DNA of 64,000 nucleotides from Bradyrhizobium sp. 200. GTDB taxonomy: Bacteria > Pseudomonadota > Alphaproteobacteria > Rhizobiales > Xanthobacteraceae. The notes beneath the pieces were generated by a model, which did not search any database, was not told where the DNA came from, and saw only the letters and a program-made list of their open reading frames with translations. Within the stretch, counting starts at the first letter, position 1, and each line of letters starts with the position of its first letter. This document shows positions 43,207-61,058 of this stretch, piece after piece. A program made the translations under genes and the position numbers. The DNA lies in the NCBI RefSeq assembly GCF_023100945.1, contig NZ_CP064689.1, forward strand, positions 5,996,001-6,060,000. Reading direction: 5' to 3'.

Positions 43207-44090
43207 GCGCCGAGGCTCTCGATACGGGCTTTGCGGAAGCGCGCGACACCGGCGTATTCGCCCGCGCCGGGGTGTTGCGCCGGCTGGCGCGCGACCGGGT
43301 CGCGGCCCTCGCCGGGGTGGCGCTCACGGCAATCGTGCTGGCAGCGCTGTTTGCGCCCTGGATCGCGCCCTACGATCCCTACTTCACCGACCTCACCAAG
43401 GTGATGCAGCCGCCCAGCGCCAAGCACTGGTTCGGCACCGACAACACCGGCCGCGACATCTTCAGCCGCGTCCTCTACGGCACGCGCAACACGCTGATGC
43501 TCGGGCTGGTCGGCGTGATCGTCGGCGGCTTCATCGGCGGCGTTCTCGGCATCCTCGCCGCCTATTATCGCCGCCTCGACGGCTGGATCATGCGGCTGGT
43601 CGACGTGATGCTGGCCTTCCCCGCGATCCTGATTGGGCTCGCGGTGGCCGCGATCTTCGGCGCCGGACTGACAGCCGTGGTGATCGCGCTCGTCGTCGCG
43701 ACCGTGCCCGATGTCGCGCGGGTGGCGCGAGGCGCCGCGATCAGCGTGATGGGCCAGGAATTCATGGAAGCCGGCCGCGCCGTCGGCGTCTCCGACGGCG
43801 AACTGATCTGGCGCTACCTGACGCTCAACTGCATTTCGACGATCTTCGTGTTTCTCACCTTGCGCTTCGGCCAGATCATCCTGATCGGCGCGGCACTCGG
43901 CTTCCTCGGCATGGGTGCGCAGCCGCCGACCGCCGAACTCGGCATGATGGCGGCGCAAGGCCGCGACTTCCTGTTCATGGCGCCGCACATCGCGACGATC
44001 CCGAGCTGTGCCATCTTCGTGATCGTGCTGGCCGCCAACCTTTTGGGCGACGCATTCCGCGACGTCCTCGATCCGAGGCTGCAGACATGA
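43203..44090 (+). CDS. Peptide-type ABC transporter permease, DppC family
   Basis: A 295-aa permease. The start ATG overlaps the upstream stop (ATGA). AKHWFGTDNTGRDIFSRVLYG at about 73-93 is the DppC signature; the coupling loop is EFMEAGRAVGVSDGELIWRYL near 184-204. The N-terminal 35 residues are polar and precede the first helix (VAALAGVALTAIVLAALFAP). Its 3' end overlaps the first binding-protein gene by 4 nt. Confidence 0.92.
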   Translation: MSAEALDTGFAEARDTGVFARAGVLRRLARDRVAALAGVALTAIVLAALFAPWIAPYDPYFTDLTKVMQPPSAKHWFGTDNTGRDIFSRVLYGTRNTLMLGLVGVIVGGFIGGVLGILAAYYRRLDGWIMRLVDVMLAFPAILIGLAVAAIFGAGLTAVVIALVVATVPDVARVARGAAISVMGQEFMEAGRAVGVSDGELIWRYLTLNCISTIFVFLTLRFGQIILIGAALGFLGMGAQPPTAELGMMAAQGRDFLFMAPHIATIPSCAIFVIVLAANLLGDAFRDVLDPRLQT

Positions 44091-45670
44091 TCAGGATCGC
44101 ACTGGGCAGGATTGCATTGGGAATGTGTCTGGCACCGTGCGTCGCAGGTCCGGCATCGGCCCAGACGCTCCAACTGATGAAGGGCATCGACGCGCCGCAT
44201 TACGACGCGCAACGCACGACCTGGGGACCGACCTCCGACATCGTCAACATGTTCCAGGACACGCTGGTGGCACTCGACTGGGACGGTCGCACGCCGGTTC
44301 CCTATCTCGCCAAATCGTGGACGATCAGCGAGGACGGCAGGACCTATACGTTCAAGCTGCGCGACGACGTGTCGTTCTGCAGCGGCAAGAAGTTTACCGC
44401 CGATGACGTCGTCTACACTTTCAAGCGGCTGAAGGACCCGGCGCTCAAGGCGCCCTATGCCTGGCGCGCCGGCAACATCAAGGAATTGCGCGCGCCCGAT
44501 CCCACCACCGTCGAATACGAGCTCGAAGAGCCCTACTCCGAACTTCTGCTGCAGCTCACCATGTTCACCAACGTGATCCACAACAAGGAGAGCGTCGAGG
44601 CGCTGGGCAAGGATTACGGCATCAAGGGCGCCGACGGCACCGGACCCTGGTGTTTCGAGAGTTGGCAGCCGCGCACCGAAATCGTGCTCAAGCGCCACGA
44701 TGCCTACCGGTGGGGCCCGTCATTGTACAAGAACAAGGGGCCGGTGAAGTTCGAAAAGCTCAGCATGAAGATCATGCCCGAGGAGTCCAGTCGCGTCGCA
44801 GCGATGATGGCCGGACAGTTCGACATGACCCACCAGTTCCCTCCGGCATTCATCGCCCAGGCCCGGGCCGCCCCGATGCTGTCCGTGACGGCGGCGAAGC
44901 CGAACTTCCAGTTGCTCTATTTCGGCTTCAAGACGACGCGGCCGATGGTATCAGACAAGCGCGTGCGTGAGGCGATGAGCATCGCCATCAACCGTTCCGA
45001 AATCGCAACAGCCATCCTGCTCGGCAACGCCGATCCAGCCTTCACGATCGTCGACAAGGATGCGCTCGACCACGACCCGAAGACGGCAGGCATCGTCAAG
45101 GAGGACATCGAGCGCGCAAAGGCGCTGCTCGACGAAGCCGGCTGGAAGATGGGCAGCGACGGCGTGCGCGAGAAGGACGGCGTCAAGCTGCAGCCCAGGG
45201 TCTACTACACCCAGGCCGGCAACACGCCGCGGGTCGCGGAAGCGATCCAGGGCTATCTGCGCCGCATCGGCGTGCAGTGGCAGCTTCAGCCATGGGACTC
45301 CACCATTGCTCCCGCCAAGATGGCCGAGCAGGACTACGAGATCTGGTCGGTGACGGTGCCCTATCTGTCGGCCGGCGACCTCATGAACATCTATTTCGAT
45401 TCCCGCAACATCCCGACGCCCAACCGGATGAACTGGAAGGACGCCGAAACCGATGAATGGCTGAAGCAGGGGCGCTCGGCGCTGACCGAGGCCGACCGCG
45501 CCAAATACTACGCGCTGGTGCAGCAGAAGGTGATGCGAGAGCACCTCTGGATACCCGTACTCAACATCAACATGGACCAGGTGGCCAACAAGAAGATCAC
45601 CGATGCCAGGCCGCACATGATCTACCAGAACACCTTCTACAAGGGCCTGGACGTGTCGCGCCAGAAATAA
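44087..45670 (+). CDS. Peptide-type substrate-binding protein (family 5), first tandem copy
   Basis: A 527-aa periplasmic binding protein with signal peptide (IALGRIALGMCLAPCVAG, cleaved near ASAQT). Family 5 blocks are [40 protein letters not shown] and [19 protein letters not shown]. The next gene encodes a close paralogue. The start overlaps the DppC-like stop (ATGA). The two copies differ mainly in scattered surface residues and in the region around residues 245-270, which may tune ligand choice. Confidence 0.92.
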   Translation: MIRIALGRIALGMCLAPCVAGPASAQTLQLMKGIDAPHYDAQRTTWGPTSDIVNMFQDTLVALDWDGRTPVPYLAKSWTISEDGRTYTFKLRDDVSFCSGKKFTADDVVYTFKRLKDPALKAPYAWRAGNIKELRAPDPTTVEYELEEPYSELLLQLTMFTNVIHNKESVEALGKDYGIKGADGTGPWCFESWQPRTEIVLKRHDAYRWGPSLYKNKGPVKFEKLSMKIMPEESSRVAAMMAGQFDMTHQFPPAFIAQARAAPMLSVTAAKPNFQLLYFGFKTTRPMVSDKRVREAMSIAINRSEIATAILLGNADPAFTIVDKDALDHDPKTAGIVKEDIERAKALLDEAGWKMGSDGVREKDGVKLQPRVYYTQAGNTPRVAEAIQGYLRRIGVQWQLQPWDSTIAPAKMAEQDYEIWSVTVPYLSAGDLMNIYFDSRNIPTPNRMNWKDAETDEWLKQGRSALTEADRAKYYALVQQKVMREHLWIPVLNINMDQVANKKITDARPHMIYQNTFYKGLDVSRQK

Positions 45671-45686
45671 CGAGGGAGAGAATACG

Positions 45687-47257
45687 ATGCGCAGCATTTT
45701 GACGGGCGCCGTGGCGCTGCTGGGAGCGGCCGGGATTGCTTCGGCCGCCGAGGCGCAGACTTTGCGGGTGATGAAATCGCTGGACGCGCCGCATTATGAC
45801 GGCCAGCGCACGACCTGGTCGCCGACGTCCGACATCGTCAACATGTTCCAGGATACGCTGGTCGCGCTCGACTGGGACGGCAAGACGGCGATCCCCTACC
45901 TCGCCAAATCGTGGGAGATCAGCGAGGATGGCAGAACCTATACCTTCAAGCTGCGCGACGACGTGACGTTCTGCAGCGGCAAGAAGTTCACCGCCGCCGA
46001 CGTCATCTACAGCTTCAAGCGGCTGAAGGATCCCGACACCAAGGCGCCGTATCATTGGCGCGCCGGCGACATCAAGGAGCTGCGCGCACCCGATCCTTAT
46101 ACCGTCGAGTACGAGCTCAACGAACCATACTCCGAACTGCTGCTGCAGCTCACCATGTACACCAACGCGATCCATAACAAGGACAGCGTGGAGACGCTGG
46201 GCAAGGATTACGGCATCAAGGGAATCGACGGCACCGGACCGTGGTGCTTCGAGAGCTGGCAGCCGCGCACGGAAATCGTGCTGAAACGCCACGACGCCTA
46301 CAAATGGGGCCCATCGATGTACAAGAACAAGGGCCCGGTGAAATTCGACAAGCTCAGCATCAAGATCGTGCCGGAGGACGCCAGCCGCGTCGCCGCCATC
46401 ATGGGCGGACAGTTCGATCTCACCCATCAGGTTCCGCTGCAATTCATCGAGCAGGTCAAGGCCGCGCCCAACCTGACCGTCCAGGAGGCTCAGCCGAACT
46501 TCCAGTTGATGTATTACGGCTACAAGATCACGCGCCCGATGGTATCGGACAAGCGCGTGCGCGAAGCGATGAACATCGCGATCAACCGCGCCGAGATCGT
46601 CAAGGGCGTCATGCTGGGCAACGCCGAACCGGCGTTCACCTTTGTCGATCCGAAGGCGCTCGACTTCGCCGCGAAAACCAAGGACGTCATCAAGGAAGAC
46701 GTCGAACGCGCCAAGAAGCTTCTGGACGAAGCCGGCTGGAAGGTCGGCAGTGACGGTATCCGCGAGAAGGACGGCATGAAGCTCGCGCCCCGCGTCCTGT
46801 TCACCCAGGTCGCCTATTTCCCGCGCGTGTCCGAAGCCATCCAAGGCTACATGCGCAAGATCGGCGTCGACTGGAAGATCGTCGGCTACGACTCCACGAT
46901 TGCGCCAGCCGAGATGGGCAAGCAGGACTACGAGCTGTGGACCGTGACCGTGCCTTATCTGTCAGCGGGTGAGCTGATGAACATCTATTTCAACTCGAAG
47001 AACATCCCTACCCCCAACCGCATGAACTGGAAGGACGCCGAGACCGACGATTGGCTGAGCGCCGGCCGCGCCGCGTTGACCGACGCCGAGCGTACGCTCA
47101 ACTACGCCCGCGTGCAGGAGAAGGTGATGAACGAGCATCTATGGATGCCGGTGATGAACGTCGCGATGTACACGACCAGCTCGAAGAAGATGAAGGGCGT
47201 CAGGCCGCACATGCTCTATCAGAACACCTTCTACAAGGGACTGGATTACTCGTTCTG

Positions 47258-47258
<1 letters not shown>
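45687..47258 (+). CDS. Peptide-type substrate-binding protein (family 5), second tandem copy
   Basis: A 523-aa periplasmic binding protein with signal peptide ending near ASAAEAQT. It is nearly colinear with the preceding gene: over about 220 residues after the signal peptide I count roughly 35 differences by eye, so about 84 percent identity. The gene begins 16 nt after its paralogue, preceded by AGGGAGAG. This is a tandem duplication kept inside a transport operon. Both probably feed the same permease pair with different but related ligands. Its TGA overlaps the ATPase start (TGATG). Confidence 0.92.
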
Positions 47259-49402: not shown

Positions 49403-50596
49403 CTACCCGGTGTGCTCGATGGCGCGGATGGCGCCGCGCAGTTCGGCGAGCCCACGCAGCCGGCCGATCGCGGTATAGCCGGGATTTGTGCGCTTGGTCT
49501 CGGCCAGATCGTCCAGCATGCGATGACCGTGATCCGGCCGAAACACGATCTGGTGGCGCGATGAACGCTTTTGGTTCTCGGCAAGCAGCGCCTTGAGCAC
49601 CGCGATCATGTCGACGTCGCCGTCGAGATGATCCGACTCGAAGAACGACAGGCCGTCGGCCTCCCGCTTGGTCGCCCGCAGATGCGCAAAGCCGATCCGC
49701 GGCGCGAAGCGTTTGGCCATTGCGGGCAGATCGTTCTCCGCGCGCACGCCGAGCGAGCCGGTACAGAAGCAGATGCCGTTGGCCTTCGACGGCACAGCAT
49801 CGAACAATGTCTGATAGTCTTCCGCCGAGGATGCAATGCGCGGCAGGCCGAACAGCGGGCGCGGCGGATCGTCCGGATGCAGCGTCAATGTCACGCCGAG
49901 GAATTCGGCGACCGGGGTCACGCGCGCGAGGAACTCGCTGAGGTGCCGGCGCAGCACCGAAGAATCGATGCCGCGATATTGCTGCAAGCGATCGCGGAAT
50001 TGCGGGATCGTCAGCGGATCGGTCGTAGAGCCCGGCAGCGCGCTGGCAATGTTGGTGACGAGGACATCGATATCGGCCTGCGTCATCCCTGAATAGACGT
50101 CCTTGGCGCGCTGCCGCGCGGCCTCGGAATATTCGGCCGGCGCCTCGGGGCGCTCCAGGATATGCAGATCGAATGCCGCGAACCGTTCCTGGTCGAAGCG
50201 CATCGCCTTGGCGCCGTTCGGCAGTTCCCATTCGAGATCGGTGCGGCACCAATCGACAACAGGCATGAAGTTGTAGCAGATGATCTTGATGCCGGCGGCA
50301 GCCACCGCCTCCATGCTTGCGATCCAGGCCTCGATCGAGCGTGTCGCTTTGCCCCCGAGCCGCTTGACGTCATCGGGGACCGGAATCGATTCCACCACCG
50401 ACCAGGTCAGCGGCGAACGGCCGGGCTGCGAATTCTCGATCAGGTTCTTGCGCTCTTCGACGGCGGCGCGCGTCCAGGCTTCCCCGATCGGCACCTGATG
50501 CAGCGCCGTCACCACGTCGGTCGCGCCGGCCTGGCGGATATCGTCGAGCGAAACGGGATCATTGGGCCCGTACCACCGCCATCCCTGCAGCATCAT
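49403..50596 (-). CDS. uxuA: Mannonate dehydratase
   Basis: A 397-aa TIM-barrel enzyme, close to the 394 aa of E. coli UxuA. Recognisable blocks are QGWRWYGPNDPVSLDDIRQAG at the N-terminus, CYNFMPVVDWCRTDL near 115-129, LTLHPDDPPRPLFGLPRI and GICFCTGSLGVR (metal-binding His and Cys region), then HLRATKRE and FRPDHGH. It dehydrates D-mannonate to 2-keto-3-deoxygluconate. Last gene of the operon TRAP-dehydrogenase-uxuA, 28 nt after the dehydrogenase. With UxuB at 55706-57226 it forms the fructuronate-to-KDG branch. Confidence 0.95.
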   Translation of the reverse strand: MMLQGWRWYGPNDPVSLDDIRQAGATDVVTALHQVPIGEAWTRAAVEERKNLIENSQPGRSPLTWSVVESIPVPDDVKRLGGKATRSIEAWIASMEAVAAAGIKIICYNFMPVVDWCRTDLEWELPNGAKAMRFDQERFAAFDLHILERPEAPAEYSEAARQRAKDVYSGMTQADIDVLVTNIASALPGSTTDPLTIPQFRDRLQQYRGIDSSVLRRHLSEFLARVTPVAEFLGVTLTLHPDDPPRPLFGLPRIASSAEDYQTLFDAVPSKANGICFCTGSLGVRAENDLPAMAKRFAPRIGFAHLRATKREADGLSFFESDHLDGDVDMIAVLKALLAENQKRSSRHQIVFRPDHGHRMLDDLAETKRTNPGYTAIGRLRGLAELRGAIRAIEHTG

Positions 50597-50624
50597 GGGC
50601 GATCTCCTGAAATCTGAACTACAC

Positions 50625-51671
50625 TCAGGCCGTCAGCACGACCTTGACGCTTTGCGAGCGGTCGAGCGCCAGCCGTACCGCGTCAGGCGCGACCGATAGC
50701 GGGCGCTGCGCCGTCACCAGCGAAAGCACGTCCACGCTGCCATCGGCGATCAGTTCGACCGCGGTGAAGAATTCCATCCCGAAGCGGAACGAGCCGCGCA
50801 GGTCAATCTCCTTGGCCATGACAGCATTCGCCGGCACCGGGATCTGTCCGCCAGGCAGATTGCCGACCTGAACCACAACGCCGCCGCGCCTGACGACGCC
50901 GATGGCGCTGGCGAGGCCTGCGGCCGTACCCGAGACCTCAAACGCGACGTCGAACGGATGCGCCGCAGCTTCGGCCTTCAGCGCCTCCTCGCCACCGGAG
51001 ATATCGACAACATGGTCGGCGCCGAGTTTCGTCGCAAACGCCAGCGGCGCTGCCGCGATGTCGACGACGGTCGTCTCCGCGATCCCTGCGCGCTGCGCCG
51101 CCAGCATGGTCAGCAAGCCGATCGGGCCGGCACCGAACAGCACCGCGCGCTTGCCGGTAACGTTGCCGGCGCGGGCGACCGCATGCAGGCAAACCGCGAG
51201 CGGTTCGGCCAGCGCCGCCGCCTGATAGGTCACGTGATCCGGAATCTTCACACACTGTGCCGGGATGGCGTCGAAGTAGGACGCAAAGCCCCCCTGCATA
51301 TGCGGCGTCTTCGAGGCCGATCCCATGAAGAAGATGTTCTCGCAGAGATTGGCCCGGTTCTCGCGGCAAGGCTTGCAGTGGCCGCACCAGCGCGACGGAT
51401 TGAGGGCGACGCGGTCGCCGACCTTCACATCAGCCGCGGGGCCTGCGATCTCGACCACCTCGCCCGCAATCTCGTGGCCGAGCACCAGCGGCGAGGTCAC
51501 CACGAAATCGCCGGTGCGGGCATGGCGATAGTAATGCATGTCCGAGCCGCAAATGCCGCCGGCGCCGAAGCGGATGCGCACCATGCCTGATGCGAGCGGA
51601 TCGAGCGGCCGCTCGATCATGCGCAGATCTTCCGGGCCGAACAGCGTTGCAGCCAAAGCCATCGATGTCAT
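50625..51671 (-). CDS. Zinc-dependent L-idonate/L-gulonate 5-dehydrogenase-like enzyme
   Basis: A 348-aa zinc alcohol dehydrogenase of the medium-chain type. Catalytic zinc ligands are in GICGSDMHYYRH and LGHEIAGEV. The structural zinc loop is RWCGHCKPCRENRANLCEN. The Rossmann motif is VLFGAGPIGLLTMLAA. Close family members oxidise C5 of aldonates (L-idonate to 5-ketogluconate, L-gulonate to fructuronate). With UxuB and UxuA in the same locus, conversion of L-gulonate to D-fructuronate would make a complete route to KDG. ATG 51671 overlaps the TRAP permease stop (ATGA). Confidence 0.87.
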   Translation of the reverse strand: MTSMALAATLFGPEDLRMIERPLDPLASGMVRIRFGAGGICGSDMHYYRHARTGDFVVTSPLVLGHEIAGEVVEIAGPAADVKVGDRVALNPSRWCGHCKPCRENRANLCENIFFMGSASKTPHMQGGFASYFDAIPAQCVKIPDHVTYQAAALAEPLAVCLHAVARAGNVTGKRAVLFGAGPIGLLTMLAAQRAGIAETTVVDIAAAPLAFATKLGADHVVDISGGEEALKAEAAAHPFDVAFEVSGTAAGLASAIGVVRRGGVVVQVGNLPGGQIPVPANAVMAKEIDLRGSFRFGMEFFTAVELIADGSVDVLSLVTAQRPLSVAPDAVRLALDRSQSVKVVLTA

Positions 51672-53074
51672 TTTGAGAGTCCCATGTATTTTGGCAACCA
51701 GAGCGTCAGCTCCGGGATGTAGGTGATGGCGACGAGCGCCAATAGCAGCGGCACCAGCCACGGCAGGATCGCCATGGTCGTGCGCTCTACGGACAATTTC
51801 GCTACCCGCGCGAGCACGAACAGCACCATGCCGAGCGGCGGGTGAAGAAGCCCGATCATCAGGTTCAGCGTCATGATCAGGCCGAAATGAATGGGATCGA
51901 TGCCCAGTTTCAGAACGATCGGCAGCAGGATCGGAACTAAAATCGTGATGGCGGCGATGGTGTCGATGAAGCAGCCGACGAACAGGATCAGGATGTTCGC
52001 CAGCAGCAGGAACACCCATTTGTTCTGGGTGATCCCGAGCATTGCATCGGTCAGCGTCTGCGCCGCCTGCGACACCGTCAGCAGCCACGCGAAGATCGAG
52101 GCTGCCGTGACAATGAACAGCACCGAGGCCGTGGTCTCGATGGTGTCGAACGTCGCCTTGGCAACGGTCTGCAGCGTCATCGAGCGGTAACGCACCAGCC
52201 CGAGGAACAGCGACCAGATCACCGCGGCGACCGCGGCTTCCGTCGGCGTGAACCAGCCGAGCGTCATGCCGCCGATCAGGATGACGGGAGCCATCAGCGC
52301 CATCACGGCGGAGAAATCGAAATACCAATCGAGCGCCAGCAGCGCCACGAGACCGATGCCGACGGCCATGTTCACCGACATTCCGCCGACGACCAGCAGC
52401 CAGACCACCAGCGGGAAAGCCAGGACGATGAAGATTTCGAGGGCGGCCGAGCCGATCTGCGGCCAGGAGAACGGCGTGTCGCTGCCCCAGCCGTTCTTGT
52501 GGGCGAAATAGGCAACCGTCGCCATCATGGCCAACGTCATGACGACGCCGGGAATGACGCCACCCAGGAACAGCGCGCCGATCGAGACGTTCGCCATCAT
52601 GCCGTAGATCACGAACGGCAGCGACGGCGGGATGATCGGGCCGAGCGTGGCGGAGGCCGCCGTCACGCCGACGGCGAACTCGGTCGAGTAGCCGTGATCC
52701 TTCATCGCCTTGATCTCGATGGTGCCGAGCCCCGCGGCATCCGCGATCGCGGTGCCGGACATGCCCGAGAAGATCACCGAGCCGACGATATTGACGTGGC
52801 CGAGGCCGCCGCGCATCCAGCCCACCAGCGCGACCGCGAATTTGTAGATGCGCCCGGTGACACCAGCGATGTTCATGAGGTTGCCGGCCAGGATGAAGAA
52901 CGGCACGGCCAGCAGCGGAAAGCTCTCGACACCGGCGATCATGCGCTGCGCCAGCGTTACGTCGGGCGTGATGCCGGTAACGAGAATGTACACCAGCGAC
53001 GATACCGCCATGGCGAGCGCGACCGGCAGGCCGACCAGCATCAGCAGCAGAAATCCCCCAAGCAGCAGCAGCAT
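51668..53074 (-). CDS. dctM: TRAP transporter large permease (DctM)
   Basis: A 468-aa membrane protein of the DctM type, with FLLLMLVGLPVALAMAVSSL, FILAGNLMNIAGVTGRIYKFA, FSGMSGTAIADAAGLGTIEIKAM and GCFIDTIAAITILVPILLPI. It is about 40 residues longer than usual, with an extra pair of hydrophobic stretches near 240-270. It carries the solute using a sodium gradient. The start lies 5 nt after the DctQ stop. Confidence 0.93.
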   Translation of the reverse strand: MLLLLGGFLLLMLVGLPVALAMAVSSLVYILVTGITPDVTLAQRMIAGVESFPLLAVPFFILAGNLMNIAGVTGRIYKFAVALVGWMRGGLGHVNIVGSVIFSGMSGTAIADAAGLGTIEIKAMKDHGYSTEFAVGVTAASATLGPIIPPSLPFVIYGMMANVSIGALFLGGVIPGVVMTLAMMATVAYFAHKNGWGSDTPFSWPQIGSAALEIFIVLAFPLVVWLLVVGGMSVNMAVGIGLVALLALDWYFDFSAVMALMAPVILIGGMTLGWFTPTEAAVAAVIWSLFLGLVRYRSMTLQTVAKATFDTIETTASVLFIVTAASIFAWLLTVSQAAQTLTDAMLGITQNKWVFLLLANILILFVGCFIDTIAAITILVPILLPIVLKLGIDPIHFGLIMTLNLMIGLLHPPLGMVLFVLARVAKLSVERTTMAILPWLVPLLLALVAITYIPELTLWLPKYMGLSK

Positions 53075-53079
53075 CGCCC

Positions 53080-53658
53080 CTACCCTTCCGTTCCGTCGAA
53101 GGCGCCGGGGCGCTCCAGGATCGAATAGCCCCGCCGCCAGTTCTCGACCGCGATCTGGATCGAGCGCGCGAACATCAGCACGAAGCCGAGCAGCACGGCG
53201 TAGTAGACGAAGCCTTTTTGAAACTTGATCGTGGTCATCCGCTCATCACCAATGATCTGGATGAACTGCCAGACCAGCTTGATCGCATAGCCGAAGAACG
53301 CGATCCGGATCAGATCGATGACGGTTGATAGCGCACGCGCCGGCAGATGCGGCAAATAACGGAACAAGAGATCGACCTGGATGTGCCGCGACAACCGCAC
53401 GCACATGGCCGACCCGATGAACACCACGCCGATCAGGCAGTAGGTCGCGATCTCCTCGGTCCAGGCATAACTGTCGTTGAGGACATAACGGGTGAAGAAC
53501 TGCAGGAAGACGGACAGCGCCATGATCCAGAAGATCGCAAGCGCCAGCCAGTCCTCGGTCGCATACTGGCTCAGATCCGCGCCCTTGGGGACTTCGTCCT
53601 CGAAGGTGTGGGCGATCTCGTCCGCCGTGATCTGCTTGTGAACTTCAACCGTCGACAT
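53080..53658 (-). CDS. dctQ: TRAP transporter small permease (DctQ)
   Basis: A 192-aa four-helix membrane protein: LALAIFWIMALSVFLQFFTRYVL, SYAWTEEIATYCLIGVVFIGSA (with the conserved W-EE motif), then two further helices. It pairs with DctM. Separated from the DctP gene by a 114-nt gap that holds a very stable inverted repeat, which could lower its expression relative to the binding protein. Confidence 0.91.
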   Translation of the reverse strand: MSTVEVHKQITADEIAHTFEDEVPKGADLSQYATEDWLALAIFWIMALSVFLQFFTRYVLNDSYAWTEEIATYCLIGVVFIGSAMCVRLSRHIQVDLLFRYLPHLPARALSTVIDLIRIAFFGYAIKLVWQFIQIIGDERMTTIKFQKGFVYYAVLLGFVLMFARSIQIAVENWRRGYSILERPGAFDGTEG

Positions 53659-53680
53659 GCGTTTATTCCCCGGCTCTCAC

Positions 53681-53762
53681 GTCATTCCGGGGCGACGCGT
53701 CAGCGTCGAACCCGGAATCTTGAGATCCCGGGTTCGACGCTGACGCGTCGCCCCGGGATGAC
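53681..53762. repeat. 82-bp near-perfect inverted repeat with 40-bp arms
   Basis: Arms at 53681-53720 and 53723-53762 are complementary over 40 bp with two mismatches and a 2-nt centre. The arms begin GTCATTCCGGGG and end CCCCGGGATGAC. This is a common Bradyrhizobium intergenic repeat. It lies inside the TRAP operon between dctP and dctQ, 10 nt after the dctP stop. Confidence 0.9.
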
Positions 53763-53772
53763 GACTTCGTCG

Positions 53773-54750
53773 TCACTTCACCGCCTGGATGCGTTCCCAG
53801 TCGGCCTTGCGGTAGTCGAAGCTCTCGAAGCTGACGTTCTTGAGCACGGTGTCGCGGAACTCAGACTTGTTGACCTCGGTCACCGTCAGGCCCTTCTGCT
53901 TGAAGAAATCGACCAGCTTGGCTTCATTGGTCTTGATCTCGGCCGTCGCCTTCGCCGCCGCTTCCTGCGCAACATCGGTGAAGATCTTGCGGTCTTCCTC
54001 GGACAACTTCTTCCAGAGCGCGCCGGAGATCACGGTGTTGAGGTGATCGACGATGTGGCCGGTCAGCACGATGTGCTTCTGCACTTCGTAGAACTTCTTG
54101 GCCTCGATGGTCGTGAGCGGATTTTCCTGGGCTTCCACGGTGCCGTTCTGCAGCGCGAGATAGACCTCGGCAAAGGCGATCGGCGCGGTGTTGGCGCCGC
54201 AGGCGCGCGGCATCGCGAGATAGGCCGGCACATCAGGCACGCGAATCTTGAGGCCCTTCATGTCGGCGCAGGTCTTGATCGGCTTGTTCGACGAGGTGTG
54301 GCGCACGCCGTAATAAGTCACCGCCACGATGCGGTGGCCGGTCTTGTCCTCGTAGCCCTTGGTAAGCTCCTTGAAGACGTCGCTCTTGGTATAGGCCAGC
54401 AGATGGTCGGCGTCGCGGAAGGTGTAGGGATAGTAGGTCACGCCGATCGGCGGAAAGCTCTTGGCCGCAAAGCTCGAGCCTGAGATGATCATGTCGACCG
54501 AGCCCAGCGAAAGCCCCTGGTTGATGTCGGTTTCCTTGCCAAGCTGCGAGGCCGGATAGACGTCGATCTGGTAGCGGCCATTGGTGCGCTTGTTGATTTC
54601 GCCGGCGGCCCACACGGAAGCGGTATGGAACGGCTCGGACGTCTCGTAAACGTGGGCCCATTTGAGCTTGGTCTGCGCCACGCCCGAAGTGGTCGCGGCC
54701 AACAGCGCCGCAGCAGACGCCGCGAATGCAATCGTCAATTTCTTCAACAT
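53773..54750 (-). CDS. dctP: TRAP transporter solute-binding protein (DctP)
   Basis: A 325-aa periplasmic protein with a signal peptide cleaved near SGVAQT. The DctP fold is shown by LKWAHVYETSEPFHTASVWAAGEIN, IDVYPASQLGKETDINQGL, and the ligand-gripping block LKIRVPDVPAYLAMPRACGANTAPIAFAEVYLALQNGTVEAQENP with the conserved Arg that salt-bridges a carboxylate. The ligand is therefore an acid, probably a hexonate or hexuronate given the neighbouring enzymes. First gene of the dctPQM-dehydrogenase-uxuA operon. Confidence 0.93.
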   Translation of the reverse strand: MLKKLTIAFAASAAALLAATTSGVAQTKLKWAHVYETSEPFHTASVWAAGEINKRTNGRYQIDVYPASQLGKETDINQGLSLGSVDMIISGSSFAAKSFPPIGVTYYPYTFRDADHLLAYTKSDVFKELTKGYEDKTGHRIVAVTYYGVRHTSSNKPIKTCADMKGLKIRVPDVPAYLAMPRACGANTAPIAFAEVYLALQNGTVEAQENPLTTIEAKKFYEVQKHIVLTGHIVDHLNTVISGALWKKLSEEDRKIFTDVAQEAAAKATAEIKTNEAKLVDFFKQKGLTVTEVNKSEFRDTVLKNVSFESFDYRKADWERIQAVK

Positions 54751-54845
54751 TTGAATTCCTCCCTTGCTACAATTTGCTTTTGTTACTCAACCGGCGCGGC
54801 ATTTCGCCGAACCGTTCGAATTCCTGGTCGTTTTCCTGGGTTCGC

Positions 54846-55583
54846 TCAGCCGCTGCTCGCATGGACGCGGGAGGCGGACGAAGCCTCCGCTCCGAAATTT
54901 TGCGCAAAGCGGGCCTGCGAACGCGCCAGGTGCTCACGCATCGTCACGCGGGCCGCGTCCGGATCATGTGCGGCGATGGCATCGCGGATCGCCCGGTGCT
55001 CGGCCAGCGCCGCATTCCAGGATTGCGGGTTCTCGAAATAATGCGCGAGCTTGGCGAAGTAGGGATTGAGCCGCTGGTCGAACAATTCACCGACCACGCG
55101 GACCAGCACGGCGTTGTCGAGACATCCGGCTACAGCTACATGAAACGCACGGTCATGGATCATCGAGGCTTCGCCCGGATGCTGCACGGTGGCCATCGCT
55201 TCCAGCGAAGCGTCGATGCGCGCGATGTCTTCACGTGTCGCCACCCGCGCCGCCTGTTCGGCGATGGCGCCTTCGAGGAATTCGCGCGCACGCAGCAGTT
55301 CAAACGGGCCCTCGATCTCGGCCGCCGCCGGCAGGACCGGCGCGAGCGCCGTCGGCTCACTGACGTAAATTCCGGAGCCGACGCGAATCCGCACCCGGCC
55401 CTCGACCTCCAGGGCGATCAGCGCTTCGCGCACCGTCGGCCGCGACACTTTCAACTGTTCGGCAAGATCGCGTTCGGTGGGAAGCCGGCTGCCCACAGCG
55501 TATTCGCCGCTGTCGATCAAGGCGCGGAGCTGATCTGCAACCTGGCGATAAAGGCGTCGCGCTTCCACGGCTTCGAGCGGCAC
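54846..55583 (-). CDS. FadR-subfamily GntR regulator of the hexonate genes (UxuR-like)
   Basis: A 245-aa regulator. Winged helix: LYRQVADQLRALIDSGEYAVGSRLPTERDLAEQLKVSRPTVREALIALEVEGRV at about 11-64. FCD domain: FELLRAREFLEGAIAEQAARVA and DRAFHVAVAGCLDN with histidines expected to hold a metal near the ligand site. It is divergent from UxuB; the AATTGG-CCAATT dyad at 55661-55677 between them resembles the E. coli UxuR/ExuR site. It probably represses uxuB and its own operon until an intermediate such as fructuronate binds. Confidence 0.88.
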   Translation of the reverse strand: MPLEAVEARRLYRQVADQLRALIDSGEYAVGSRLPTERDLAEQLKVSRPTVREALIALEVEGRVRIRVGSGIYVSEPTALAPVLPAAAEIEGPFELLRAREFLEGAIAEQAARVATREDIARIDASLEAMATVQHPGEASMIHDRAFHVAVAGCLDNAVLVRVVGELFDQRLNPYFAKLAHYFENPQSWNAALAEHRAIRDAIAAHDPDAARVTMREHLARSQARFAQNFGAEASSASRVHASSG

Positions 55584-55660
55584 GCTCGGCTCTCCCTGAC
55601 GATCCCCTTAAGTGAATCGATTTTTCTTGCTTTGCCTGGGCCAACGTCAATAAATCGGCA

Positions 55661-55677
55661 AATTGGCCTTACCAATT
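55661..55677. promoter_or_regulatory. UxuR/ExuR-like operator upstream of uxuB
   Basis: AATTGG at 55661-55666 and CCAATT at 55672-55677 are perfect 6-bp arms around CCTTA. The known enterobacterial ExuR/UxuR consensus is AATTGGTATACCAATT, so the arms are identical and only the spacer is one base longer. The site is 28 nt before the uxuB ATG and 77 nt before the regulator gene. Confidence 0.6.
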
Positions 55678-55705
55678 GACCAAAGATTGATCGATCGAGC
55701 TTTCC

Positions 55706-57226
55706 ATGTCAAGCGAAACGGCGAAAATCCTGCCTTCCGGCCCGAATGACGGCGATTTGCGCCTGTGCAACGCCAACCTCGACAGGCTTCCCGGCCATAT
55801 CAGGCGTCCGGCCTATGACCGCTCGCGCGTCACGCCGGGCATCGTTCATCTCGGAATCGGCGCGTTCCACCGAGCGCACCAGGCGGTGGTGATCGACGAC
55901 CTTCTTGCAGGCGGCGCCACGGAGTGGGGAATCGTCGGGGCCAGTTTGCGCAGTCCGGAAACGCGCGATGCGCTGGCGCCGCAGGACTGCCTCTACACCC
56001 TCGCCGTTCGCTCCGGCGCGGGCACCGATCACCGGATCATCGGCTCGGTTCTCGCCACCGAAGTCGCCACCGAGAAGCCCGGGCAGTTGATCGCGCGCCT
56101 GGCTAATCCGGCCACGCGCATCGTCTCGCTGACGGTCACCGAGAAGGGCTACTGTCATACGCCGCAAACCGGCGATCTCGACGAACATCATCCCGACATC
56201 GTTCATGACCTGCAGAATCCGGGCACGCCGTGCTCGGCCATAGGATTTCTGGTGGCCGCACTCGCACGCCGGCGGATTGCAGGCGCGGCCCCCTTCACCG
56301 TTCTGTCCTGCGATAACCTCTCCGCCAATGGCCAGACTGTCGGACGGATCGTGACGCAGTTCGCAGCCCTTCGGTCGCGCAATCTCGCCAAATGGATCGA
56401 AGCCGAGGTGGCCTTCCCGTCAACGATGGTGGACCGGATCGTGCCGGAGACCACGGAGCTGGACCGGGCAGAAATGTCTTCCGTGCTCGGCATGACCGAC
56501 GCTCGGCCTGTCGTCACCGAGCCATTCACACAATGGATCGTCGAAGACCGCTTCCCGGCCGGGCGGCCGGATTTCGCGGCTGCGGGCGTGCAGATGGTTT
56601 CGGACGTGACGCCGTTCGAACACATGAAGCTGCGGCTGCTCAACGCCAGTCATTCGGCGCTCGCCTATCTCGGCTACCTCGCCGGCCACGAGACCATCGC
56701 CGCGGCCATGACCGATCATCGCTTTGCAGCTTTTGCCCAGCGGGTGATGCAGGATGCGGCGCCAACGCTGACGATGCCCGAAGGTACCGACCTTGCCGCT
56801 TACAGCGCGTCGCTGCTGCAGCGTTTTTCCAATGCCGCCCTGCACCACCGCACCTGGCAGATCGCGATGGACGGTTCGCAGAAGCTGCCGCAGCGGCTGC
56901 TCGCCACCATGCAGGACCGGCTGCGGCTGGGGATGCCGATCGATACCCACGCGCTCGCGGTGGCCGGCTGGATGCGTTACGTCACCGGCACCGACGAGCA
57001 GGGACGCGCGATCGACGTGCGCGATCCGCTTGCCGCGAAGCTGAAGGCCATTGCCGAGAGCGCCGGCCCGGTCGCGGAGCGGCTTGCGTCGGCGTTGCTG
57101 GAGGTCGATTCCATCTTCGGTGCGCTAGGAGCCGATCCTCGCATGCGCAGCGCCGTCACCGAGGCTCTCACCAAACTCTACGCACTTGGTGCACGTCAGG
57201 CCGTACAGACGTTTCAGGCAGCATGA
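55706..57226 (+). CDS. uxuB: Fructuronate reductase, mannitol dehydrogenase family
   Basis: A 506-aa long-chain polyol dehydrogenase. The N-terminal domain shows GIVHLGIGAFHRAHQAVVID at about 47-66 (NAD-binding GxGxFxRxH), then SLTVTEKGYCH and STMVDRIVP. The catalytic lysine region is MKLRLLNASHSALAYLGYLAG, with the KxxxxNxxH pattern of the family. It reduces D-fructuronate to D-mannonate, which UxuA then dehydrates. Mannitol or arabitol dehydrogenase is the alternative, but the neighbouring uxuA, hexonate dehydrogenase and regulator favour UxuB. About 20 residues longer than the E. coli enzyme, mainly at the N-terminus. Confidence 0.88.
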   Translation: MSSETAKILPSGPNDGDLRLCNANLDRLPGHIRRPAYDRSRVTPGIVHLGIGAFHRAHQAVVIDDLLAGGATEWGIVGASLRSPETRDALAPQDCLYTLAVRSGAGTDHRIIGSVLATEVATEKPGQLIARLANPATRIVSLTVTEKGYCHTPQTGDLDEHHPDIVHDLQNPGTPCSAIGFLVAALARRRIAGAAPFTVLSCDNLSANGQTVGRIVTQFAALRSRNLAKWIEAEVAFPSTMVDRIVPETTELDRAEMSSVLGMTDARPVVTEPFTQWIVEDRFPAGRPDFAAAGVQMVSDVTPFEHMKLRLLNASHSALAYLGYLAGHETIAAAMTDHRFAAFAQRVMQDAAPTLTMPEGTDLAAYSASLLQRFSNAALHHRTWQIAMDGSQKLPQRLLATMQDRLRLGMPIDTHALAVAGWMRYVTGTDEQGRAIDVRDPLAAKLKAIAESAGPVAERLASALLEVDSIFGALGADPRMRSAVTEALTKLYALGARQAVQTFQAA

Positions 57227-57528: not shown

Positions 57529-58359
57529 CTACGGTGACAACAACGTCCTGGTGAGTTGGTGATGGGGATCGGCGAGCCCGTCGATGACATCGAAATGATG
57601 CCGGCCGGGTTCTTCGATCATGCGGGTTTTCGCGCCGAGCCCGGTCCAGATGTTGGCGAGGAGCGCGCTCTGGCGGACGAATTCCGGGCGCTCGGCGCTG
57701 CCCACCCAGCACGTCACGCGTGCGTTCTGCATCGGCTCCAGCAATGCGGGGCTTTCCGCGAACGCCTCGGCCTCGTCGATCCGAAGGTCCGTATTCATGG
57801 CAGCCTTCATCAGCGGACGAAGGTCATGAACGCCGGAAATGGAGACGGTGTGGCTGATGCGCGCCCGGACATCGTCCGGGAGCGGCGACGTCGCCGAAAT
57901 CATGCGCGTCACCAGATGCCCGCCGGCGGAATGGCCGACCAGAAAAAGCGGGCCTTCGACCATCGCGGCGGCGCGCTCGACGGCCGCGGCAATTTCGCGC
58001 GTGATCTCGGAGATGCGCACGGCCGGGCACAGTGTGTAGGAGGGCATCGCCACCGCATAGCCGCTTTCAACCGATCCGCGCGCGAGATGCGACCAAAAGC
58101 TCTTGTCGAGCGCCTTCCAGAATCCGCCATGGACGAAGACGACCAGGCCCTTTGGCCGGTCTTCCGGGCTAAAGAGATCGAAACGGTTTCGTGCCCGCTC
58201 GCCATAGCGGACGTCGAGCGTCGCACGGCCGCTGTCCAGAAGTGCGTCGCGATAGGCCTGGGCGGGCTGCACCCACGCCGCCGGCCAGCGTTCGCCGCCC
58301 GGAATATTCGGAGCATTCGCATAGGCGTCGTTCCAATCGGAAATCTGATGAAAAATCAC
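57529..58359 (-). CDS. Alpha/beta-hydrolase, candidate kynurenine formamidase
   Basis: A 276-aa alpha/beta hydrolase. HGGFW at 77-81 (oxyanion motif of the HSL/arylformamidase group), the nucleophile elbow VGHSAGGH with S144, and EPGRHHFDVID with the catalytic His are clear. The eukaryotic-type arylformamidase signature HGGxW-x4-KSFWSHLA is present. Divergent from kynU-kynA, so hydrolysis of N-formylkynurenine is the likely role; no metal-dependent KynB gene is in the window. I place the start at GTG 58359 because the sequence there (VIFHQISDWNDAY) fits the family; the frame continues to 58500 without similarity and would overlap the kynU promoter. Confidence 0.75.
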   Translation of the reverse strand: MIFHQISDWNDAYANAPNIPGGERWPAAWVQPAQAYRDALLDSGRATLDVRYGERARNRFDLFSPEDRPKGLVVFVHGGFWKALDKSFWSHLARGSVESGYAVAMPSYTLCPAVRISEITREIAAAVERAAAMVEGPLFLVGHSAGGHLVTRMISATSPLPDDVRARISHTVSISGVHDLRPLMKAAMNTDLRIDEAEAFAESPALLEPMQNARVTCWVGSAERPEFVRQSALLANIWTGLGAKTRMIEEPGRHHFDVIDGLADPHHQLTRTLLSP

Positions 58360-58457
58360 GCGGTTCGGCTTCCATTTGATCTTGTGGGCCGGGCCGATGT
58401 CCGATCGATGCCCGCAGGCAACCAGTCTATACCGGGAAGCGCACCTCCCGCCCATAA

Positions 58458-58473
58458 ATTTCAAGCTTGAAAT
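58458..58473. promoter_or_regulatory. 16-bp perfect palindrome between hydrolase and kynU
   Basis: ATTTCAAGCTTGAAAT is a perfect 16-bp palindrome at 58458-58473, in the 164-nt divergent region of the formamidase candidate and kynU. Bacterial kynurenine genes are known to be controlled by the Lrp/AsnC-type regulator KynR, so this is a possible KynR-like operator. No such regulator gene is in the window. Confidence 0.45.
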
Positions 58474-58523
58474 AATTGATATCAGCGCGAATAATTCCAA
58501 GGGGGGCGCGGACCAGGAAAGCC

Positions 58524-59717
58524 ATGACCGATTTCACGCGAACAAGATCCCTGTTCGCCATCCCGGATGGCGTGATCTATCTGGACGGCAATTCGCTCGG
58601 TCCCTTGCCCGTTGCCGCCGCCGATCGCGTCGGCCGCACGATATCGGAGGAATGGGGCAAGCACCTTATCAAGGGCTGGAACGTCGCCGGGTGGATGACG
58701 CAGCCGCGGCGTGTCGGCGACCGCATCGGCCGGTTGATCGGCGCTGCCGACGGGACGGTGGTGGTGGGCGATACGCTGTCCATCAAAGTCTACCAGGCGC
58801 TGGCCTCGGCGCTCGAACTCAATCCGTCGCGGCGCGTAATCTTGTCGGACACCGGCAACTTTCCTTCCGATCTCTACATCGCCAGCGGCCTGCTTGAATC
58901 GCTCGACCGTGGCTACGAGTTGAAGGTCGTGGCCCCCGAAGACGTCGAAGCCGCCATCGACGAGACGATCGCGGTGCTGATGCTGACCGAGGTCGACTAT
59001 CGCACCGGCCGGCTGCACGACATGAGCGCACTGACGCGCAGGGCGCATGCCGCCGGCGCGCTGACGGTCTGGGATCTGGCACACTCCGCGGGCGCGATCC
59101 CGGTCGACTTGGAAGGTACTGAGGCCGATTTCGCCGTCGGCAGCACCTACAAATATCTCAATGCCGGTCCTGGCGCGCCGGCCTTCATCTATGTAGCGCC
59201 TGACCACGCCGATACGGCGCGGCCGGCGCTTTCCGGTTGGATGGGTCATCACGCGCCCTTTGCCTTTGACCTCGACTATCGCGCCGGGCCGGGCATTGAG
59301 CGAATGCGGGTCGGTACGCCCCCGATCATCGCGATGGCCGCGCTCGAGGCCGCCCTCGACGTCTGGGACGACGTCAGCATGACCGACGTACGCCATGCAT
59401 CGATCGAGCTTGGCGACCTGTTCATCCGCGAAGTCGAAGGACGTTGTCCAGAGCTGACGCTGGCCTCGCCGCGGGACGGAAAGCGGCGCGGCAGCCAGGT
59501 TTCGTTTCGTCACCCGGATGGCTACGCGATCATGCAGGCGCTGATCGCGCGCAACGTGATAGGCGACTTCCGCGCGCCGGACATGATGCGCTTCGGCTTT
59601 ACGCCGCTCTACATCGGAGAAGCCGAGGTTCGCGCCGCCGTCGACGTCATCGCCGATGTGTTGACCAATCGCCGCTGGGATACTGCGGATTACCGCAAAA
59701 AGGCGCTCGTAACATGA
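58524..59717 (+). CDS. kynU: Kynureninase
   Basis: A 397-aa PLP enzyme. [11 protein letters not shown] at about 19-29 is the kynureninase start, followed by [14 protein letters not shown] ([18 protein letters not shown]), [30 protein letters not shown] (Asp contacting PLP) and the Schiff-base Lys in [17 protein letters not shown]. It cleaves kynurenine to anthranilate and alanine. A Shine-Dalgarno (CAGGAAAG) precedes ATG 58524. Its TGA overlaps the start of kynA (ATGA). The anthranilate produced can be activated by the ligase at 61059-62750. Confidence 0.95.
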
Positions 59718-60553
59718 CTGACAAGCTTAACGACTCCTCGCGGGAGGGAGCCCTGATGTCGTTCGAAGGGCGCATGTCCTACAGCGATTATCTGCATCTG
59801 GAACGCGTTCTGGACGCGCAAGAACCGCTCTCGGGGGCGCATGACGAACTGCTGTTCATCATCCAGCACCAGACCTCCGAACTCTGGATGAAGCTCGCCA
59901 TCCACGAAATCCGTTCTGCCATCAAGGCGATCCGCCACGACCAGTTGCAGCCCGCCTTCAAGATGCTGTCGCGCATCGCTCGGATCTTCGAGCAGCTCAA
60001 TACCGCCTGGGACGTGTTGCGGACGATGACACCGAGCGAATACACGCAGTTTCGCGATCAACTCGGACAGTCCTCGGGTTTCCAGTCGTACCAGTACCGC
60101 GCGATCGAGTTCCTCGCCGGCAATCGCAATTTGGCGCTGCTTGGCCCGCACGCCCACCGCGCCGACATCATGGCAAAGCTCGAGGAAATTCTCGCTGAGC
60201 CGGGCCTCTACGACGAGGCGCTGCTGCTGCTGGCGCGAAATGGCTTTGACATCGGCGAAGACGCGCGCCGAACCGACTGGCGCGTCAAGCGCACGCCAAA
60301 CGACGAGGTTTTGGCGGCCTGGAAGACCGTCTATGCGTCACCGGCCAAACACTGGATGCTCTACGAGCTTGCGGAAAAGCTGGTCGATTTCGAGGACTAT
60401 TTCCGCCGCTGGCGCTTCAACCATGTCACGACGGTCGAGCGCATCATCGGCCTGAAGCGAGGAACCGGCGGCACGTCGGGCGTCTCCTACTTGCGCAAGA
60501 TGCTCGAGGTCGAGCTTTTTCCGGAACTCTGGAAGCTGAGAACAGAGCTCTAG
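59714..60553 (+). CDS. kynA: Tryptophan 2,3-dioxygenase
   Basis: A 279-aa heme dioxygenase: [41 protein letters not shown] (substrate-pocket His), [18 protein letters not shown], the proximal heme His in [15 protein letters not shown], and [17 protein letters not shown]. It opens the indole ring of L-tryptophan to give N-formylkynurenine. Coupled to kynU by an ATGA overlap, so the two enzymes are co-expressed. It ends convergently with the Rid-family gene, 22 nt away. Confidence 0.96.
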
Positions 60554-60575
60554 GACGACGCCGGACAAGCGGATT

Positions 60576-61034
60576 TCAGCGCGGCACCACCGCTGTCGCC
60601 TCGATCTCCACAAGCGCCGCCTTCTCGACCAGGCGTACCACCTGAACCAGCGCCATCGCCGGATAATGCGCGCCAAAAATCTCGCGATAGGCGCGGCCAA
60701 GCTCTTTCAGGCTCGCGAGATATTCCTCAATGTCGACGACATACCAGGTCAACCGCACCAGATGCTCAGGTCTGGCGCCGCCCGCGGCAAGAATCTCGGA
60801 AATGTTGGCGAGCGTCTGGCGTACCTGCGCGACGAAGTCCGGCGCCAGATGCCCTTGCGTATCCCAGCCGATCACGCCGCCGGTCACCACAAGCCGGCCA
60901 TCGGCGGCCATGCCGTTGGCATATCCCTTCGGCATCGGCCAGCCGCTCGGCTGCAACACTTGCGGGCCCGATAGCGATGCGTCGGTCTTGGGATCAGGCA
61001 CCACGCTCAGCTTGGGGCCTTTGGGGGCGGTCAC
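60576..61034 (-). CDS. Rid-family (YjgF/UK114) protein lacking the catalytic arginine
   Basis: A 152-aa trimer-forming Rid-fold protein: VVTGGVIGWDTQGHLAPDFVAQ and the C-terminal strand HYPAMALVQVVRLVEKAALVEIEATAVV. In true RidA imine deaminases the corresponding strand reads YPARSCVEVARL, and the first Arg binds the substrate carboxylate; here Met127 occupies it. So it is not expected to be a standard enamine deaminase. It is 24 nt downstream of the aminobenzoate-CoA ligase gene on the same strand, and a role in later steps of aminobenzoyl-CoA degradation is inferred. Confidence 0.86.
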   Translation of the reverse strand: MTAPKGPKLSVVPDPKTDASLSGPQVLQPSGWPMPKGYANGMAADGRLVVTGGVIGWDTQGHLAPDFVAQVRQTLANISEILAAGGARPEHLVRLTWYVVDIEEYLASLKELGRAYREIFGAHYPAMALVQVVRLVEKAALVEIEATAVVPR

Positions 61035-61058
61035 CGGCTTTCTCCATCAAGTTAGGCG

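What the first reader, a model, noticed from the sequence alone, without database searches (positions are those of the whole stretch)
49403..57226. Hexonate catabolic module that enters at fructuronate through a 5-dehydrogenase
DctPQM, a zinc 5-dehydrogenase, UxuA, UxuB and an UxuR-like regulator are together, but no UxaC isomerase is. L-gulonate to D-fructuronate to D-mannonate to KDG would use every enzyme present. A comparable L-gulonate route is known in Chromohalobacter, where ManD replaces UxuA, so this would be a different enzyme set. L-idonate is an alternative substrate.
Basis: partly seen in the sequence, partly recalled or inferred. Interest (0 to 1): 0.7.

Follow-up and report, generated by a model that had tools for sequence, protein, structure and literature searches.

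The report
L-gulonate catabolic operon, idonate-dehydrogenase type
This soil bacterium carries a compact gene set that most likely imports the sugar acid L-gulonate and breaks it down; the pathway is already known in other bacteria, but here its first enzyme seems to come from a different enzyme family, usually labelled L-idonate dehydrogenase.

Summary
Confirmed: gntR-dctPQM-zinc dehydrogenase-uxuA with uxuB divergent (49403-57226). No UxaC in the genome or in any of 146 genus genomes; no KduI. KDG kinase- and KDPG aldolase-type genes lie together elsewhere. Best reading, inferred: L-gulonate -> D-fructuronate -> D-mannonate -> KDG. The claimed new enzyme set is mostly not new: Haemophilus influenzae is shown to use TRAP/GulD/UxuB/UxuA for L-gulonate (PMC5788505). 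What differs is ancestry: the dehydrogenase is IdnD-type (40% to E. coli IdnD), whereas a Haemophilus-like cluster has an RspB/LgoD-type one. IdnD-type enzymes split by neighbourhood, idnO or uxuA/rspA, almost never both. One column (N271) tracks the split, also in loci not used to find it, but with too few independent contrasts for significance. Against: loci chosen by the binding protein alone have the dehydrogenase beside it in 8 of 10, but uxuA near it in none, and an L-galactonate-like gene set in one. A conserved palindrome (14 of 14 loci) suggests one operator. Variant of a known pathway; moderate interest.

The parts
49403..50596 (-). UxuA, D-mannonate dehydratase (397 aa), last gene of the operon
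   Evidence: TIGR00695 464.5 bits, over cut-off; 51.8% to E. coli UxuA; PDB 4eac 434 bits; only UxuA in the genome
50625..51671 (-). Zinc medium-chain dehydrogenase of IdnD type (348 aa), proposed L-gulonate 5-dehydrogenase; ATGA overlap with dctM
50859..50861 (-). Codon of N271, the alignment column that best separates uxuA-linked from idnO-linked IdnD-type enzymes
51668..53074 (-). DctM, TRAP large permease (468 aa)
   Evidence: PF06808 435 bits
53080..53658 (-). DctQ, TRAP small permease (192 aa)
   Evidence: PF04290 100.4 bits
53659..53772 (-). dctP-dctQ intergenic hairpin, 33 continuous pairs in its main stem
   Evidence: MFE -86.6 kcal/mol, z -12.4; stem length counted
53773..54750 (-). 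DctP, TRAP solute-binding protein (325 aa); ligand unknown
   Evidence: PF03480 252.4 bits; nearest PDB sequence a sialate-binding SiaP (4mnp, 190 bits), HiGulP 4pbq 118 bits; AF2 model pLDDT 90.7
54846..55583 (-). GntR/FCD (FadR-subfamily) regulator, ExuR/UxuR-like (245 aa)
   Evidence: PF00392, PF07729; ExuR 152.9, UxuR 134.2 bits
55661..55677 (.). Candidate operator, a 17-bp palindrome between the divergent gntR and uxuB
   Evidence: core ATTGGN5CCAAT in 14 of 14 loci of this type; 6 sites in the genome against 1 for the reversed control pattern
55706..57226 (+). UxuB, fructuronate reductase (mannonate oxidoreductase), mannitol-DH family (506 aa), divergent from the operon
   Evidence: PF01232 and PF08125; NF011611 479.7 bits, below cut-off; 49.7% to E. 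coli UxuB, 26.3% to UxaB; only PF08125 member in the genome

Best explanation
A substrate-inducible L-gulonate utilisation module. The TRAP transporter DctPQM imports L-gulonate (perhaps D-mannonate or other aldonates too). The IdnD-type zinc dehydrogenase oxidises C5 to give D-fructuronate; UxuB reduces this to D-mannonate; UxuA dehydrates it to KDG; the kinase and aldolase encoded together near 3.643-3.645 Mb of the chromosome finish via KDPG. The ExuR/UxuR-like repressor, bound at the palindrome between gntR and uxuB, would control both divergent units and be released by an intermediate such as D-fructuronate. Shown here: gene content, absence of UxaC and KduI, presence of genes for the lower steps, recurrence, conserved palindrome. 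Inferred: ligand, substrate, order of steps, repression and induction.
For: No UxaC in the genome or in 146 of 146 genus genomes and no KduI, so neither searched isomerase family can feed UxuB; sole UxuA and sole UxuB-family gene lie here. KdgK-like kinase (303 bits, below cut-off 400) next to Eda (237.5 bits, over 156). The same chemistry and gene classes are proven in H. influenzae. Among 32 loci with a DctP of 65% or more, uxuA is near in 17, RspA/ManD-type in 5, neither in 10, idnO in 0; these loci were found through the dehydrogenase, so its presence there proves nothing. In 10 plasmid loci chosen by DctP alone (10 of 212 records) an IdnD-type dehydrogenase is next to the transporter in 8. 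4 genomes hold both this dehydrogenase (with uxuA and uxuB) and a 45-46% paralogue with idnO, which speaks for two functions. Palindrome conserved 14 of 14, of FadR-subfamily form with the 3-nt GT-AC spacing reported for ExuR.
Against: No direct substrate evidence. DctP resembles sialate-binding SiaP more than HiGulP, and the fold comparison did not discriminate. The dehydrogenase is nearest to L-idonate 5-dehydrogenase in sequence and structure. UxuB is under its subfamily cut-off. 10 of 32 same-transporter loci have neither uxuA nor rspA within about 10 kb and none of the 10 DctP-chosen plasmid loci has uxuA within about 9 kb; Mesorhizobium has UxuA elsewhere, the others were not searched. 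One DctP-chosen locus (L191) pairs the transporter with UxuB-, LgoD- and UxaA-like genes instead, another (L189) with SDR and UxaA-family genes, which hints at a wider or different aldonate ligand. The three Mesorhizobium genomes, one Pseudorhizobium and one uncultured Rhizobiaceae also hold UxaC-family genes. L105 has the enzymes without this transporter.
Confidence: 0.6

Rival explanations
1. L-idonate module: the dehydrogenase makes 5-keto-D-gluconate, UxuB or another reductase makes D-gluconate, and UxuA serves another route.
For: Dehydrogenase nearest to IdnD; a 44% IdnO-like SDR exists elsewhere in the genome; the own genome has no second IdnD-type match at E 1e-60 (5 candidates scored).
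Against: No idnO (45% or more) in this cluster, in 32 same-transporter loci or in 10 DctP-chosen loci; UxuA would have no role; the 44% SDR gene stands alone between two ORFs that look like outer-membrane proteins (unscanned); another idnO-like stretch (63% over 95 residues) carries a stop; six loci of other genus members have separate idnO-linked paralogues (L112-L117).
Confidence: 0.12
2. A broader or different aldonate module, L-galactonate with or without L-gulonate: the transporter carries several L-aldonates and the enzymes next to it differ by lineage.
For: The same DctP clade sits with UxuB-, LgoD- and UxaA-like genes in L191 and with UxaA-family genes in L188 and L189; UxaA-family genes in L028, L038 and L065, LgoD-like genes in L079, L083 and L175.
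Against: No UxaA- or LgoD-type gene is in the window cluster; UxuA and UxuB point to D-mannonate, not D-altronate.
Confidence: 0.11
3. D-mannonate is the main imported substrate; UxuA acts alone on it, and dehydrogenase plus UxuB only interconvert L-gulonate and D-mannonate.
For: HiGulP binds both L-gulonate and D-mannonate, and both induce the pathway genes.
Against: In loci chosen by DctP alone the dehydrogenase is beside it in 8 of 10 and uxuA in 0 of 10, so the usual partner of this transporter is the dehydrogenase.
Confidence: 0.1
4. D-glucuronate or D-fructuronate utilisation with an unrecognised isomerase, the dehydrogenase having a side role.
For: UxuA/UxuB classically serve glucuronate (PMC6353982 passage); the regulator's best hit is ExuR.
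Against: UxaC absent in 146 of 146 genus genomes, KduI absent in this one; a zinc 5-dehydrogenase has no role in that route.
Confidence: 0.07

Closest known systems
Haemophilus influenzae L-gulonate pathway (GulPQM, GulD, UxuB, UxuA, KdgK, KdgA, UxuR; eLife 2018, PMC5788505)
   Same: TRAP transporter, 5-dehydrogenase, fructuronate reductase, UxuA, GntR regulator; same proposed steps
   Different: DctP is not close to HiGulP (118 bits; 29% over 298 aligned residues). That L176 stands for H. influenzae is my inference; HI0053 itself was not held. KdgK/KdgA are unlinked here
Chromohalobacter salexigens L-gulonate pathway (Wichelecki 2014; not held, recalled, and cited in PMC5507952)
   Same: TRAP transporter, GntR regulator, L-gulonate (passage of PMC5507952)
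   Different: Involves an enolase-superfamily ManD (recalled); enzyme types not compared here
E. coli hexuronate pathway (UxaC, UxuB, UxuA, UxuR/ExuR)
   Same: UxuB, UxuA, related regulator
   Different: no UxaC, an extra zinc dehydrogenase, TRAP transporter instead of ExuT
E. coli L-idonate pathway (IdnD, IdnO, IdnK, IdnT)
   Same: IdnD-type dehydrogenase
   Different: no IdnO, IdnK or IdnT in the cluster; UxuB and UxuA instead

Membership tests
H. influenzae-type gul pathway | TRAP transporter, a 5-dehydrogenase candidate, fructuronate reductase, UxuA and a GntR regulator clustered | tested here: met
H. influenzae-type gul pathway | solute-binding protein in the HiGulP group (median about 60% identity in PMC5788505) | tested here: not met
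H. influenzae-type gul pathway | dehydrogenase orthologous to GulD | tested here: inconclusive
   31% to the dehydrogenase of the Haemophilus-like cluster L176, which is RspB/LgoD-type; HI0053 itself not held
H. influenzae-type gul pathway | KdgK and KdgA encoded | tested here: met
   adjacent pair elsewhere in the genome; kinase below its model's cut-off
H. influenzae-type gul pathway | L-gulonate binding and oxidation at C5 | not testable with these tools
   needs biochemistry
Hexuronate isomerase pathway (UxaC-UxuB-UxuA) | UxaC | tested here: not met
L-idonate (Idn) pathway | IdnD equivalog (NF007375, cut-off 469) | tested here: not met
   301.5 bits
L-idonate (Idn) pathway | IdnO with the dehydrogenase | tested here: not met
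   none among the cluster's genes; best genome hit 44%, unlinked
UxuA (TIGR00695) | score over the equivalog cut-off | tested here: met
   464.5 against 199.55
Fructuronate reductase UxuB (NF011611) | score over the cut-off | tested here: not met
   479.7 against 603, yet the best hit; 49.7% to E. coli UxuB against 26.3% to UxaB
FadR-subfamily regulator of ExuR type | TKGT/ACMA palindrome with 3-nt GT-AC spacing | tested here: inconclusive
   TGGYCTTACCA in 14 of 14 loci; with Y=T it fits fully, in the window Y=C in one half-site; rule from passages of PMC4494728; binding not tested

The most novel reading that the evidence does not exclude
IdnD-type dehydrogenases changed from L-idonate to L-gulonate several times (the Bradyrhizobium-Mesorhizobium clade, a second alpha-proteobacterial clade, and a beta-proteobacterial group paired with RspA/ManD), each time replacing the Leu/Met that follows the VG motif in the presumed substrate pocket by Asn, Val or Thr. 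A large class now named L-idonate 5-dehydrogenase would then be L-gulonate (or related L-aldonate) 5-dehydrogenase, recognisable from one residue and its neighbours.
Probability: 0.33. Interest if true: 0.5.

Novelty: new variant of a known kind. Interest (0 to 1): 0.36.

Why it matters
It would correct a common annotation (every source name shown among the 120 dehydrogenase relatives listed is 'L-idonate 5-dehydrogenase'), give a soil and rhizosphere genus an aldonate diet, and offer a simple residue-level test of how a polyol-type dehydrogenase tells apart aldonates that differ at one carbon. L-gulonate is a plausible soil substrate, being an intermediate of fungal D-glucuronate breakdown (passages of PMC6353982).

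Tried and rejected
Comparing predicted folds to infer the DctP ligand: the PDB titles were cut before the ligand for most EFI entries and the top rows were all TRAP-type binding proteins with similar Z; abandoned. The structure model of the dehydrogenase confirmed an IdnD/sorbitol-DH-like fold only; no coordinates were read, so the pocket position of residue 271 rests on the VG-x motif and on recalled equivalence to horse ADH Val294 and human sorbitol dehydrogenase Leu274.

An ATTGGN5CCAAT site inside eda looked like a link to the regulon; rejected because it lies inside the coding sequence and spells a stretch IGEAN of the aldolase (translation).

Treating the N271 correlation as statistically proven: rejected. 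Fisher p 1e-11 on the 60 of 75 test loci that fall in one of the two classes ignores shared ancestry; on the tree only 3 supported independent pairs exist (5 in all) and the sign test gave a median p of 0.5. Exceptions: 5 of 40 idnO-linked test loci have V or I; 1 of 38 uxu-linked rows of the combined set has L.

'The dehydrogenase is always beside this transporter' was first drawn from loci that had been found through the dehydrogenase, which is circular. I therefore searched with DctP alone on plasmids and opened 10 of 212 records: 8 of 10 have it, 2 do not. Because of the L-galactonate-like set in one of these two I lowered the best explanation from 0.65 to 0.60, raised the mixed-aldonate rival from 0.06 to 0.11 and lowered the novel case from 0.35 to 0.33.

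L176 carries UxaC in its cluster, so in that lineage the cluster may also serve uronates. Of the 10 regions opened only L176 showed a zinc dehydrogenase with my queries.
Full report
WHAT IS THERE. On the minus strand, reading from 55583 down to 49403, lie a GntR/FCD regulator, DctP, DctQ, DctM, a zinc-dependent dehydrogenase and UxuA; a UxuB-type enzyme is divergent at 55706-57226. dctM and the dehydrogenase overlap by ATGA. The genome is one contig of 9.49 Mb; the window is C1:5996001-6060000. The nearest named relatives of the dehydrogenase are Bradyrhizobium (B. lablabi 95%; a Bradyrhizobium protein 96%). Upstream on the plus strand is a peptide-type ABC transporter, and beyond uxuB a tryptophan/kynurenine gene group; neither looks part of the module.

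IS UXAC REALLY MISSING? PF02614 gave no match in the whole genome and none in 146 genomes of the genus, this one included, 137 of them at least 90% complete and at most 5% contaminated; 7 of 14 control genomes rang. KduI, another isomerase able to act on hexuronates (recalled), is absent from this genome. I gave nineteen of the 80 scan loci (16 with uxuA or rspA and no idnO, plus three Mesorhizobium): 14 of 19 genomes have no UxaC-family match; 5 do (three Mesorhizobium, one Pseudorhizobium, one uncultured Rhizobiaceae). Several of these are drafts or MAGs and their completeness was not told. A scan locus left out, L064, has uxaC, uxuA, uxuB and idnO together.

IS THE PATHWAY COMPLETE? The only UxuA and the only mannitol-DH-family gene of the genome are here. 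A KdgK-like kinase (303 bits, under its 400 cut-off) and a KDPG aldolase (237.5 bits, over 156) are adjacent at about 3.643-3.645 Mb. KDG can thus probably reach pyruvate and glyceraldehyde 3-phosphate.

PRECEDENT. I read the abstract, the Discussion and passages of PMC5788505: in H. influenzae a TRAP system GulPQM, GulD, UxuB, UxuA, KdgK and KdgA degrade L-gulonate, with enzyme kinetics, a ligand-bound structure, knock-outs of GulP and GulD, induction and 13C labelling. The Chromohalobacter paper was not held. In the held open-licence library, searches listed no paper that, by title and start of abstract, reports L-gulonate use in Bradyrhizobium or an IdnD-type L-gulonate dehydrogenase.

COMPARATIVE EVIDENCE. 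A scan with an alignment of the dehydrogenase returned 80 loci (597 or more stretches matched, best 80 kept). Loci with uxuA or rspA near the dehydrogenase: 17; with idnO: 44; both: 1. In a separate, evenly drawn sample of 397 genomes of the phylum, 59 had an IdnD-type enzyme (at most 5 candidates scored per genome); all 75 places outside the own genome were fetched: uxuA or rspA 19, idnO 41, both 0; one further locus has uxuB with idnO. DctP orthologues of 65% or more occur in 15 of 80 and 17 of 75 loci; none has idnO; uxuA is near in 17, rspA in 5, neither in 10 of these 32. In named loci the dehydratase is UxuA in alpha-proteobacteria and an RspA/ManD-type enzyme (67-69% to E. coli RspA) in beta-proteobacteria (L028, L038, L057, L065), with UxaA-family genes in three of these four and SDR and FAH genes confirmed in L028. 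Such a swap fits a D-mannonate intermediate. Of the ten other genomes of the genus that had a match, eight have the 84-95% orthologue and four of these also hold a 45-46% paralogue next to idnO; how many genus genomes had no match is not shown.

A TEST CHOSEN BY THE TRANSPORTER. Since the loci above were found through the dehydrogenase, I searched plasmids with DctP alone (212 records) and opened ten. Eight have an IdnD-type dehydrogenase right after dctM (residue 271: N in one, V in seven); none has idnO; none has uxuA within about 9 kb; L191 instead has UxuB-, LgoD- and UxaA-like genes and L189 SDR and UxaA-family genes. The transporter and the dehydrogenase thus go together in most but not all cases, and the ligand may be wider than L-gulonate.

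TREE AND RESIDUE. In a tree of 84 rows the uxuA-linked enzymes without idnO form two separate clades and the rspA-linked ones lie in a third region; label changes are far fewer than in shuffles. Column 271 had the lowest overlap between classes (0.02): N in Bradyrhizobium and Mesorhizobium, V in the second uxuA clade, T with rspA, L or M in 43 of 45 of the idnO group. In the 75 loci not used to find it: 0 of 20 uxu-linked rows have L/M (N 8, V 10, T 1, F 1) against 35 of 40 idnO-linked (the rest V 4, I 1); with rows of 80% or more identity to the first set removed, 0 of 9 against 19 of 23. The 15 loci in neither class (14 without markers, 1 with both) were set aside. With phylogeny taken into account only 3 supported independent pairs exist and the sign test is not significant. 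I regard the class split as well supported and the causal role of residue 271 as a hypothesis.

REGULATION. The gntR-uxuB gap holds AATTGGCCTTACCAATT; the core ATTGGN5CCAAT is present in 14 of 14 loci of this type (window, L008-L012, L101-L108), while the DNA to its left is little conserved. Versions occur in L057, L078, L110 and L159; 20 other same-transporter or uxuA-linked loci were scanned with a relaxed pattern and mostly lack it near the operon. The genome has 6 such sites against 1 for the reversed pattern. Passages of PMC4494728 give TKGT/ACMA boxes for the FadR subfamily, with 3 nt between GT and AC for ExuR and 2 for UxuR; here the spacing is 3, with C for T in one half-site of the window copy.

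VERDICT. A real, recurrent operon, most likely for L-gulonate, functionally like the H. influenzae pathway but assembled with an IdnD-type dehydrogenase, a SiaP-like binding protein and a mannitol-DH-type reductase. It works like that pathway; because the binding protein fails the orthology test I do not file it as the same system.

Noticed in passing
53659-53772: Near-perfect long hairpin between dctP and dctQ (-86.6 kcal/mol, z -12.4). The same gap folds strongly (-36 to -125 kcal/mol, no shuffle control) in all 13 testable loci of 14, with different sequences, several with GTCATTCCGG-type ends: palindromic elements seem to turn over at a fixed place, perhaps setting the DctP:DctQM ratio.
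   Followed up: partly
L105 (G130:C81): A genus member in which gntR is followed after about 170 bases by the dehydrogenase: dctPQM is missing while dehydrogenase, uxuA and uxuB remain.
   Followed up: no
G000:C1:2042890-2043174: idnO-like stretch (63% over E. coli IdnO residues 158-252) with a TAG stop, perhaps a remnant of an L-idonate operon.
   Followed up: no
L028, L038, L057, L065, L159: Clusters with the same DctP clade that pair the IdnD-type enzyme with RspA/ManD and UxuB, four of them in named beta-proteobacteria: a possible physiological setting for ManD-type enzymes.
   Followed up: partly
L191 (Neorhizobium plasmid): The same transporter clade followed by UxuB-like, LgoD-like and UxaA-like genes, which looks like an L-galactonate route.
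   Followed up: partly
L013-L015: Mesorhizobium keeps gntR-dctPQM-dehydrogenase but has uxuA elsewhere, two UxuA-family matches per genome.
   Followed up: partly
57529-62750: Tryptophan degradation group: alpha/beta hydrolase (possible kynurenine formamidase), kynureninase, tryptophan 2,3-dioxygenase, RidA-like protein and AMP-forming ligase.
   Followed up: no
44087-47258: Two consecutive, very similar SBP_bac_5 peptide-binding protein genes inside one ABC transporter operon, seemingly a tandem duplication (translations; only the first was scanned).
   Followed up: no
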